Origin: Chthonomonadales bacterium
Lineage (GTDB): Bacteria; Armatimonadota; Chthonomonadetes; Chthonomonadales; CAJBBX01
Assembly (NCBI GenBank): GCA_020849275.1
Contig: JADLGO010000022.1
Location: forward strand, 1 to 47,925
Reading direction: 5' to 3'
DNA length: 47,925 nt
Every line of letters begins with the position of its first letter. Position 1 is the stretch's first letter. The translations under genes and the position numbers were made by a program. Positions 7,453-9,851 of this stretch are shown one piece after another. Under the pieces are notes generated by a model. That model did no database searches. It was not told the DNA's origin and was given only the letters and a program-made list of their open reading frames with translations.

Positions 7453-8157
7453 TCAGCGCGCCGAGCGCGCACGGCGACGCAGCGCCGGAAGGCCGGCGGC
7501 CAGCACGCCGGCCGAGAACAGGCAGAGGGCCGACGGCTCCGGCACCGCCTGGATGTTGTCCACGCCCAGGCTCGCCACAACGGACCCTCCGGGATAGCCG
7601 GGCGCGACGCCATGGTAGAGGCGCAGCTCGGTCGCGCCGGTCAGCGCCGCCTCCACCGTGCCGGCGGCGGCCCCGAGGTGCAGGGGGTCGACCGGGAAGA
7701 GAGCGCGCACCCAGCCGCTCCCCGCCGGCAGAACGATCGGGTCGAGCGAGAAGGCGGCGTTGGCGGGCGGGCCGATCGTCGGATCGCTGATGAGCAGGCG
7801 CAGGTAGAGGTCGTCGGCGCCCATGTTGTTAAGATCGATGGCGATCCCGGGAATGCCCGCGGCCAGGTAGTCGCCGCCCCAGTGAGTCAGGTTAAGCACG
7901 CTCAGCTTGCTGCCCGCGCCTCCCCCTCCCAAGGCGGTCAGCAGCATGTAGTTGTCGTCGGCGCCGGCCGGCCCCCCGCCTGGCACGTTGGCCGGCGGAG
8001 CGGGATGCGCGGCTCCGAGCAAGCCCACGATCCAGCCCTGGGTGGTCCCGTCCTCGAAGGTGTCGATCTGGTAGAGGTCAACCGCCGACGCACGCGGGGC
8101 GCAGAAGGCGGACGCCGCCACGAGGGCGGCGCAGGGGAGCAGTCTGGTGATCCTCAT
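7453..8157 (-). CDS. PEP-CTERM sorting-domain protein
   Basis: The 234-residue protein has a signal peptide (about 1-25) and a C-terminal PEP-CTERM tripartite signal: VPEPS at 205-209, a hydrophobic helix, then an Arg-rich end (RRRARSAR). Such proteins are exported, recognised by an exosortase (EpsH/XrtA type) and processed for cell-surface or exopolysaccharide display. The central part looks like an all-beta fold, with alternating hydrophobic residues, a start YQIDTFEDGTTQGW, and no enzymatic motif, as in concanavalin-like lectin domains. The start at 8157 has GGGAGGT upstream. No exosortase gene is in the window. A sigma-54-like element lies 90 bp upstream (8248-8264). Confidence 0.88.
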   Translation of the reverse strand: MRITRLLPCAALVAASAFCAPRASAVDLYQIDTFEDGTTQGWIVGLLGAAHPAPPANVPGGGPAGADDNYMLLTALGGGGAGSKLSVLNLTHWGGDYLAAGIPGIAIDLNNMGADDLYLRLLISDPTIGPPANAAFSLDPIVLPAGSGWVRALFPVDPLHLGAAAGTVEAALTGATELRLYHGVAPGYPGGSVVASLGVDNIQAVPEPSALCLFSAGVLAAGLPALRRRARSAR

Positions 8158-8247
8158 GGGTACCTCCCGTCACGAGAAGGTCATTGGGCGGGCCGCCGGC
8201 ATTCCGATGGCCGACGGCCCGACGGGCATCAGCCCATGTGAGCAAGG

Positions 8248-8264
8248 TGCACAATTCGTGCCAA
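8248..8264 (-). promoter_or_regulatory. Sigma-54-like -24/-12 element before the PEP-CTERM gene
   Basis: Read on the minus strand, 8264 to 8248 gives TTGGCACGAATTGTGCA. This matches the RpoN consensus TTGGCACG-N4-TTGCW at every fixed position but one (G for T), with the invariant GG and GC correctly 12 bases apart. Transcription would start near 8237, about 80 bases before the start codon. The site is also partly palindromic (GCAC...GTGC), so a repressor operator is an alternative. Confidence 0.6.
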
Positions 8265-8301: not shown

Positions 8302-8338
8302 CGCCAGGGCCCGAGCGCTCGGTGCCCGGGCCCTGGCG
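8302..8338 (-). terminator. Hairpin terminator of the PilX-like gene
   Basis: A perfect 12-bp inverted repeat (8302-8313 and 8327-8338) with a 13-base loop starts 27 bases past the stop of the PilX-like gene and just before the sigma-54-like element. The arrangement separates the two minus-strand transcription units. Confidence 0.65.
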
Positions 8339-8364: not shown

Positions 8365-9642
8365 TCAGCGCGGGTTCAGCTCCGCCCAGACGCCGTCCAT
8401 CTCCCAGAAGCCGTCGCCCGCGGAGAAGTAGCCGCCGGTGTAGGTGATGGTGTTGCTGCCGTTGAAGGTGAACGTGTTGGCGATCACGGCCCCGTAGAGG
8501 TCGTTGTTGCCATTGAAGGTCACGTTGCCCCCATTCATGCTGTCGTTCACGGCGTAGACGCCGTAGCGCCCCTCGTCGTTGCCGTTCAGCGTCAGGTTGC
8601 ACCGCTCTGCCGCGTAGATGCGGCAGGCCTTCGATGGGTCCTCCGACATCGACACGCTGGCGTTGCCGCCGTTCACCGTGAAGCTCGCCGTGCCGCCCCC
8701 GCTCGCCTTGCACCAGATGTTGATGGGGCCGTCCGTGTTGTCGAACACCATCGTCCAGTTGCCGTTCACCGTCAGACCGTTGAGGTAGTAGTTGGCGCCG
8801 CCGGCCTTGCCGTGAAAGGTGAGCGTGCCGGTGCCGTTGGCGCTGACCTTGGAGTTGACGACCGCCGGACTCACCGTGGTCCGGCTGTAGTTGTGGCCGT
8901 TGAGCTGGCCGCCGGACACGTAGGCCGAGGCCAGGTTGTTGTCGTTGGAGGTGGAGAGCCAGGTCAGCCCGCCGAACGGGAAGCGCTCGTTGGCGACCTC
9001 TTCCACCGTCGGCCAGTCGATCGGCTCACGGCGCTCCGTCTGGTGGCGACCCGCGGGATTAATGGTCGCCGTCGCGGTGTCGCCGTGCAGCCCGAGCGGC
9101 CCACCCGTGATGGTGTTACTGCCGTTCACCAGCAGAGAGCCGGAGGTGCCGACGCTGCCGTCGACGGTCTGAGCGCCGTTGATGGTGCCCTGCCGCTTGG
9201 CGAAGACGGCGTAGTCGGCGTCCCCGGACCCCTTGCGCGCGCGGATCTGCACGGTGCGCGAGACGCCATCGACGCTCCCCACCGAGCGGATCAGGATGGT
9301 GGAGGGAAGGCTGTCGGGGTCGTCGATGGCGCTGCCGTCGACGTTGGCGCAGAAGGCCGAGAAGGCCCCCAGCCACGGGACGGCGCCGAGGGTACCGGTG
9401 GCCGGCGAGTCGGCGACATCGGCCGAGTTGCCAGCGGAGAGGCTGCGCAGTTCCGCGTTGATGCCGGCCTCGGCGGCGTCCAGGGCCGCACTGTAGCGCG
9501 CGTCGGCCATGGCCCGGTCAAGGTGGGAGACGGCGAGCGTGCTGACACCCACCAGGAGCATGGTGGCAACCACGATCGCGAAGAGGACGGCAATAAGGAC
9601 GGCGCCGCGCTCGGCGCCACGTGGTCGCGGCGATCGGTTCAT
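8365..9642 (-). CDS. PilX-like pilus assembly protein with Asn/Gly-rich beta repeats
   Basis: The 425-residue protein begins with a short basic segment and one hydrophobic helix (about residues 12-40, ERGAVLIAVLFAIVVATMLL), followed by a helical stretch containing ALDAAEAGINAELRSL, as in PilX N-terminal minor-pilin-like proteins. The rest is low-charge and Asn/Gly/Thr-rich, with recurring phrases such as TVNGN, TFNGNNDLYGAV and FTFNGSNTIT. This suggests a parallel beta-solenoid passenger displayed on or near a pilus. ATG 9642 is chosen because GGGAGT lies 7 bases upstream and the hydrophobic helix follows directly; an upstream extension to 9798 is unsupported. It may act with the pilus machinery implied by pilT at 378. 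Confidence 0.75.
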   Translation of the reverse strand: MNRSPRPRGAERGAVLIAVLFAIVVATMLLVGVSTLAVSHLDRAMADARYSAALDAAEAGINAELRSLSAGNSADVADSPATGTLGAVPWLGAFSAFCANVDGSAIDDPDSLPSTILIRSVGSVDGVSRTVQIRARKGSGDADYAVFAKRQGTINGAQTVDGSVGTSGSLLVNGSNTITGGPLGLHGDTATATINPAGRHQTERREPIDWPTVEEVANERFPFGGLTWLSTSNDNNLASAYVSGGQLNGHNYSRTTVSPAVVNSKVSANGTGTLTFHGKAGGANYYLNGLTVNGNWTMVFDNTDGPINIWCKASGGGTASFTVNGGNASVSMSEDPSKACRIYAAERCNLTLNGNDEGRYGVYAVNDSMNGGNVTFNGNNDLYGAVIANTFTFNGSNTITYTGGYFSAGDGFWEMDGVWAELNPR

Positions 9643-9851
9643 TGCGTAACTCCCACTATGTGTCGGCGGGGGCGGATAGGGGCGGTCTGCGCAGCGCGCT
9701 GCCTGGAGGCAGGCAGGCGGGCATGCCCGCGGCGCCGGTCCGGCTCCCCGGACCGCCTGCCCGCGTCGCGTCGACCGCTGATAGCTCTTTCCACGCATGA
9801 CGGCGCGAGCGCCCCGGCAACGGTGCCGGAGAGCGAGAGCGAGGTAGGAGG
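9643..9851. other. Gap between PilX-like and metallo-hydrolase genes
   Basis: No gene or clear promoter is seen. It contains a 14-bp perfect palindrome, GCGGGCATGCCCGC, at 9717-9730 next to a short GGCA-type direct repeat; role unknown. Confidence 0.4.

What the first reader, a model, noticed from the sequence alone, without database searches (positions are those of the whole stretch)
8248..8264. Sigma-54-like promoter element directly before a PEP-CTERM gene
The minus strand reads TTGGCACGAATTGTGCA, one mismatch from the RpoN consensus with the invariant GG and GC 12 bases apart, 90 bp before the start codon. In several Gram-negative bacteria PEP-CTERM genes are controlled by a two-component system with a sigma-54-dependent regulator (PrsK/PrsR). 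Finding the same logic in a probable Armatimonadota-like genome would show that the control circuit travels with the surface-sorting system. A hairpin just upstream isolates it from the PilX-like gene. The alternative is a palindromic operator.
Basis: partly seen in the sequence, partly recalled or inferred. Interest (0 to 1): 0.6.

Follow-up and report, generated by a model that had tools for sequence, protein, structure and literature searches.

The report
Sigma-54 switch for surface-sorted proteins
The short DNA element is almost certainly a real sigma-54 promoter, one of about three dozen in this Armatimonadota genome that together switch on its PEP-CTERM surface proteins and exopolysaccharide/exosortase genes, apparently through one activator protein that has lost its DNA-binding part.

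Summary
TTGGCACGAATTGTGCA lies on the minus strand at 8264-8248, 90 nt before a PEP-CTERM gene, and is a one-mismatch -24/-12 element. It is not an isolated match. The genome has 37 exact TGGCACG-N5-TGCA sites (3.3 expected), while TGGCACG-N5-TGCT occurs 5 times (5.4 expected). Of 25 PEP-CTERM genes found by Pfam, 22 have a >=10/11 site within 300 nt upstream; 3 more were found by following sites. Sites also precede Wzz, sugar-transferase, Wzy and epimerase genes, one at the head of an exosortase locus. The genome has one rpoN, two exosortases and one sigma-54 activator; in the order, rpoN and activator are present or absent together (14 with, 11 without). The control protein is not PrsR: it scores below the PrsR cut-off, groups elsewhere in a tree, lacks the C-terminal HTH, and carries NAFTGA where GAFTGA is usual. 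No comparable upstream activator motif was found. So the sigma-54/PEP-CTERM logic described in Proteobacteria recurs here with a different, CtcC/FlgR-like activator. The coupling is strong in this family and its nearest relatives, not phylum-wide. All evidence is comparative; no transcript was measured.

The parts
8248..8264 (-). sigma-54 -24/-12 promoter element TTGGCACGAATTGTGCA (GG at 8262/8261, GC at 8250/8249)
   Evidence: exact match to the genome's own TGGCAYG-N-WWYD-TGCA consensus; the spacer A-ATTG fits WWYD
8237..8237 (-). predicted transcription start (+1), inferred from the -12 position
   Evidence: inference from the element (C8249 = -12); not measured
7453..8157 (-). PEP-CTERM surface protein gene, 234 aa, N-terminal signal peptide
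   Evidence: single gene, ribosome site GGGAGG
7474..7548 (-). PEP-CTERM sorting tail (VPEPSALCLFSAGVLAAGLPALRRRARSAR)
   Evidence: PF07589 17.9-18.9 bits, slightly below the 20.7 gathering score, but complete PEP / hydrophobic / RRR layout
8303..8337 (-). strong GC hairpin between the upstream DUF7305 gene and the promoter, no T-tract
8365..9798 (-). upstream gene, DUF7305 (weakly PilX-like); not part of the circuit

Best explanation
The element is a sigma-54 promoter that drives the single-gene PEP-CTERM unit at 8157-7453. It belongs to a genome-wide sigma-54 regulon dedicated to the exosortase/exopolysaccharide surface system: about 25 PEP-CTERM genes, the sugar transferase/Wzz head of an exosortase locus, a Wzz-kinase, Wzy, a UDP-GlcNAc epimerase, a REC-PilZ gene and a CspA-like gene. 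Proposed mechanism: a cytosolic GAF-GAF-PAS histidine kinase phosphorylates the neighbouring REC-AAA+ activator. That activator, the only one in the genome and lacking a DNA-binding domain, acts from solution on sigma-54 polymerase waiting at all these promoters and opens them together. Shown by sequence: the sites and their positions, the single rpoN, the single activator, its missing HTH, the gene neighbourhood, and the joint presence or absence of rpoN and activator in the order. Inferred: phosphorylation, action without upstream DNA binding, the start site at 8237, and that the response is surface building or biofilm formation.
For: 37 exact sites against 3.3 expected, P about 5e-26; the TGCT-ending control is at chance. 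The unforced spacer is also constrained: A/T at both spacer positions 2 and 3 in 31 of 37 sites in a 71% GC genome, P about 7e-28. 22 of 25 Pfam PEP-CTERM genes have a >=10/11 site within 300 nt, median 68 nt before the start codon, against 7 of 820 background stretches. One rpoN with RpoN box ARRTVVKYRE, one activator, two exosortases. rpoN and activator occur together in 14 and are both absent in 11 order members at >=90% completeness, no exceptions. Genomes with rpoN have more sites (P 0.0004) and more PEP-CTERM genes (P 0.003). A sigma-54 site 20-93 nt after the activator's stop recurs in ten loci; the next gene is REC-PilZ in the own genome and REC-type in G015. No upstream motif comparable to the promoter, as expected for an activator without HTH. 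The one ortholog of this gene found (56% identical, in G040, where no rpoN was detected) has no such site. In G015 sites precede Wzz at the head of the exosortase locus, a sugar transferase, the REC gene, CspA and two CTERM-like proteins.
Against: No expression or start-site data. Three own PEP-CTERM genes (L009, L013, L020) lack a good site. In other Armatimonadota families most sampled PEP-CTERM genes have none, and G022 has 22 PEP-CTERM matches without rpoN. The absence of an upstream motif rests on a simple Gibbs search: the best motifs scored slightly above shuffles (9.4-10.2 against 8.2-9.9 bits, positive control 21.3), so a weak or degenerate motif is not excluded. Several exact sites lie in genes and are probably chance.
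Confidence: 0.87

Rival explanations
1. A palindromic operator (GCAC-GAATT-GTGC) bound by a dimeric repressor rather than a promoter.
For: The core reads as a near-dyad, and some other sites have G before TGC.
Against: Across 37 sites the conserved columns are TGGCAYG and TGCA with a WWYD spacer. The base before TGC is G in only 13 of 37, so the dyad is not conserved while the -24/-12 columns are. A dyad operator would not explain the joint occurrence with rpoN.
Confidence: 0.03
2. The sigma-54 promoters are real, but the activator is guided to them by a separate DNA-binding partner or by an undetected upstream site, so it is not a free-acting activator.
For: The Gibbs search was simple and found motifs slightly above shuffles. 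A partner protein was not searched for.
Against: No motif close to the promoter's own signal (21.3 bits) in 39 upstream regions. The HTH is missing in many Armatimonadota orthologs, as in CtcC and FlgR, which have no DNA-binding domain (PMC7175178, PMC7482065).
Confidence: 0.12
3. The true PrsK/PrsR/PrsT circuit of Proteobacteria, acquired together with the exosortase system.
For: Same layout: histidine kinase next to a REC-AAA+ activator, and sigma-54 sites before single-gene PEP-CTERM units (PMC1569441).
Against: TIGR02915 379.8 bits against cut-off 502.6; no HTH; NAFTGA; tree places it in an Armatimonadota clade (100/99) apart from PrsR L289. The tree has only one certified PrsR, so its exact relation is limited.
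Confidence: 0.05
4. A chance match without function before this particular gene, even though the regulon exists.
For: A few exact sites in the genome lie inside genes.
Against: This site has an exact core, a WWYD spacer, the right strand and a 90-nt spacing typical of the set. It is the only match within one mismatch in the window.
Confidence: 0.03

Closest known systems
PEP-CTERM/EpsH regulon with PrsK-PrsR-PrsT of Proteobacteria (Haft et al. 2006, PMC1569441; RpoN-dependent pepA, PMC9850573)
   Same: sigma-54 -24/-12 elements close to PEP-CTERM start codons (theirs average 71 nt; here median 68); single-gene units; kinase next to a REC-AAA+ activator; linked exopolysaccharide genes
   Different: Reported there only in Proteobacteria, with an upstream activator site (motif 1) and an HTH-bearing PrsR. 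Here another phylum, no HTH, no comparable upstream motif found, and a different activator lineage.
Group 5 activators without DNA-binding domain: CtcC of Chlamydia, FlgR of Helicobacter/Campylobacter (PMC7175178, PMC7482065, PMC3162934)
   Same: REC + AAA+ without HTH; a single sigma-54 activator in the genome; regulon defined by the promoter element alone
   Different: Different phylum and target set (sorted surface proteins and exopolysaccharide, not flagella or late developmental genes). [quoted passage not shown]
Sigma-54 as controller of the bacterial exterior (Francke et al. 2011, PMC3162934)
   Same: General theme: sigma-54 linked to exopolysaccharide and envelope genes
   Different: That paper's text does not mention exosortase or PEP-CTERM

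Membership tests
sigma-54 dependent promoter | GG at -24 and GC at -12 in fixed register within TGGCACG-N4-TTGCW | tested here: met
   one mismatch, GG-N10-GC
sigma-54 dependent promoter | rpoN and at least one sigma-54 activator in the genome | tested here: met
sigma-54 dependent promoter | RpoN-dependent transcript with start about 12 nt downstream of GC | not testable with these tools
   needs 5' mapping and an rpoN mutant
PEP-CTERM protein | C-terminal PEP, hydrophobic stretch, basic end; N-terminal signal peptide; exosortase in the genome | tested here: met
   HMM scores slightly below the Pfam and NCBIfam cut-offs, layout complete
PrsK/PrsR PEP-CTERM regulatory system | activator above the TIGR02915 cut-off | tested here: not met
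   379.8 against 502.6 bits; true PrsR L289 624.4
PrsK/PrsR PEP-CTERM regulatory system | C-terminal Fis-type HTH in the activator | tested here: not met
   ends about 41 residues after GNVREL starts; others with HTH 86-132
PrsK/PrsR PEP-CTERM regulatory system | PrsK kinase (TIGR02916) | tested here: not met
   TIGR02916 not among the best 25 families (down to 95 bits); GAF-GAF-PAS kinase
PrsK/PrsR PEP-CTERM regulatory system | conserved upstream motif 1 before the promoters | tested here: inconclusive
   no comparable motif; simple search
Group 5 (DNA-binding-domain-less) sigma-54 activator | REC + AAA+ with GAFTGA-type loop, no HTH | tested here: met
   (NAFTGA variant)
Group 5 (DNA-binding-domain-less) sigma-54 activator | activates promoters without an upstream site | not testable with these tools
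   needs in vitro or reporter work

The most novel reading that the evidence does not exclude
In Chthonomonadales-like Armatimonadota, sigma-54 is a dedicated surface-assembly sigma factor. One activator that lost its DNA-binding domain and carries an NAFTGA loop opens all exopolysaccharide, exosortase and PEP-CTERM promoters at once. The wiring arose independently of the proteobacterial PrsR circuit, and loss of rpoN in sister lineages goes with loss of the PEP-CTERM proteins.
Probability: 0.55. Interest if true: 0.75.

Novelty: new variant of a known kind. Interest (0 to 1): 0.62.

Why it matters
The 2006 description found the sigma-54/PEP-CTERM link only in Proteobacteria (PMC1569441). Finding it in Armatimonadota with an activator that is not PrsR suggests that tight, all-or-nothing sigma-54 control suits sorted surface proteins and has been wired more than once. 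It also gives a case, outside Chlamydia and Epsilonproteobacteria, of a genome with one sigma-54 activator lacking a DNA-binding domain, so the promoter element alone defines the regulon. That makes the regulon readable from sequence and can find sorted proteins that family models miss (three here).

Tried and rejected
Palindromic operator: dyad not conserved across sites. PrsR/PrsK identity: rejected by HMM cut-off, domain content and tree. Phylum-wide coupling: rejected by sampling PEP-CTERM genes of other families. Sites ending in TGCT (TGGCACG-N5-TGCT) as part of the consensus: at chance, though one (L003) precedes a PEP-CTERM gene. Footprinting through orthologs of the window gene: only one ortholog found, in a genome where no rpoN was detected and with 9% contamination. 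The row L249 labelled DBD-less in the tree is a truncated contig and does not count. The apparent 9/11 site before rpoN is the reverse complement of the divergent site at C2:39070. G013 sites lie mostly inside genes and look like chance. Literature searches found no paper joining Armatimonadota with exosortase or Chthonomonas with sigma-54; the one Armatimonadetes/PEP-CTERM paper mentions each term once. The library holds open-licence papers only, so this is not proof of absence.

Full report
1. The observation. The minus strand reads TTGGCACGAATTGTGCA at 8264-8248. Against the sigma-54 consensus TGGCACG-N4-TTGCW it has one mismatch and keeps GG and GC in register. It ends 90 nt before ATG 8157 of a 234-aa protein with a signal peptide and a PEP-CTERM tail. 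With GC as -13/-12, the start would be 8237. A strong hairpin at 8337-8303 separates it from the upstream gene, but without a T-tract. The upstream gene is a DUF7305 protein; its PilX likeness is weak.

2. More than chance. The genome (G000, 4.80 Mb, 73 contigs, 99.9% complete) holds 37 exact TGGCACG-N5-TGCA sites. A third-order Markov model gives 3.3, P about 5e-26. The same pattern ending in TGCT occurs 5 times against 5.4 expected, an internal control. Bases not used in the search are also constrained: A/T at spacer positions 2 and 3 in 31 of 37 sites (P about 7e-28) and C/T at position 4 in 36 of 37. A curated subset of 39 promoters gives TGGCAYG-N-WWYD-TGCA.

3. What the sites precede. 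Of 25 PEP-CTERM proteins found by Pfam, 22 have a >=10/11 site within 300 nt upstream (for L030 the script chose a wrong start, its exact site is seen). The median distance is 68 nt. Three further PEP-CTERM proteins (C18:8363, C19:18356, C2:33386) were found by following sites. Random 300-nt stretches reach >=10/11 in 7 of 820 cases. Other targets are a Wzz-tyrosine-kinase, a Wzy-type ligase, a sugar transferase followed by Wzz and a glycosyltransferase upstream of exosortase C54:54092, a UDP-GlcNAc 2-epimerase, a MinD/ParA-like ATPase divergent from rpoN, a REC-PilZ protein and a CspA-like protein.

4. The machinery. There is one rpoN (TIGR02395 317 bits, cut-off 277; RpoN box ARRTVVKYRE), two exosortases and one true sigma-54 activator (the other four PF00158 matches are weak, 21-31 bits). 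The activator (C52, L077:9407 to about 10621, minus) has REC, Sigma54_activat and AAA lid domains and then stops. It follows a GAF-GAF-PAS-HisKA-HATPase kinase after about 16 nt. A sigma-54 site lies just after its stop, before the REC-PilZ gene. A site 20-93 nt after the activator's stop recurs in ten loci; the gene behind it was read only in the own genome and in G015.

5. Missing DNA-binding domain. Twenty-five Armatimonadota rows (two of them duplicates) end 35-48 residues after GNVREL begins; activators with HTH elsewhere have 86-132. A few Armatimonadota (G032, G037, G045, G050) keep a longer C-terminus. Most of the short ones have NAFTGA, one SAFTGA (G002), one GSFTGA and one GAFTGA, while the others have GAFTGA or GSFTGA, once GTFTGA. 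In a tree of 64 activators the Armatimonadota ones form a clade at 100/99; a certified PrsR (L289) is elsewhere. [quoted passage not shown] A Gibbs search of 39 upstream regions found no motif close to the promoter's own strength.

6. Relatives. The nearest named relatives of the activator are Armatimonadetes MAGs including a Chthonomonadaceae genome. Among order members at >=90% completeness, 14 have both rpoN and exactly one activator, 11 have neither. Those with rpoN have more sites (P 0.0004; reversed control not significant) and more PEP-CTERM genes (P 0.003). In family f1 the six rpoN-less genomes at >=96% completeness have no PEP-CTERM match. Relatives G002, G003, G005 and G008 also carry sites before PEP-CTERM genes. 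In G015, which has no Pfam PEP-CTERM match, sites precede Wzz at the head of the exosortase locus, the sugar transferase, the REC gene, CspA and two proteins with CTERM-like tails. The one ortholog of the window gene, in G040 where no rpoN was detected, lacks a site.

7. Limits. Coupling is not phylum-wide: sampled PEP-CTERM genes in G054, G041, G042, G033, G047, G020 and G025 mostly have no site, and G022 has 22 PEP-CTERM matches without rpoN. Genomes are mostly MAGs. The background rate comes from relatives' loci, not from the own genome. Relatives are not independent, so the P values overstate the number of independent events. Nothing here measures transcription, phosphorylation or activator binding.

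8. Comparison. Haft et al. described the sigma-54 motif, PrsK, PrsR and PrsT in Proteobacteria only (PMC1569441), and pepA of Aquincola is RpoN-dependent (PMC9850573). The present system shares the promoter logic but fails the PrsR tests. In its activator it resembles CtcC/FlgR (PMC7175178, PMC7482065).

Noticed in passing
L077:8307-9317 (-) and the corresponding places in L115, L118, L120, L122, L129-L132, L134: A REC-PilZ gene (own genome; REC-type in G015) follows the activator behind its own sigma-54 site; the site recurs in ten loci, suggesting a second response regulator fed by the same switch, possibly linked to c-di-GMP.
   Followed up: partly
L062:1501 (-), L179:1201 (-), L355 (+): A CspA-like cold-shock gene sits 85-99 nt behind a sigma-54 site in three genomes (G000, G002, G015).
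   Followed up: partly
L183, L190, L200: In G005, G008 and G003 a sigma-54 site precedes what looks like a sigma-70-family sigma factor gene (distance 145-258 nt), a possible sigma cascade.
   Followed up: no
L198:771 (+): In G003 a sigma-54 site lies 41 nt before a GAF-like protein on the contig that carries part of the activator, hinting at autoregulation; the own genome has no such site before its kinase.
   Followed up: partly
L067 (C52:95158), L178, L203: A small multi-pass membrane protein gene without Pfam or NCBIfam match (looks DUF5658-like by eye) is a sigma-54 target in G000, G002 and G003.
   Followed up: no
L077:4489-6908 (-): A HoxE/HoxF-type bidirectional hydrogenase cluster lies downstream of the activator and the REC-PilZ gene.
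   Followed up: no
G022: 22 PEP-CTERM matches and two exosortases but no rpoN or activator, although its congener G025 has both: a recent loss or a binning gap.
   Followed up: no
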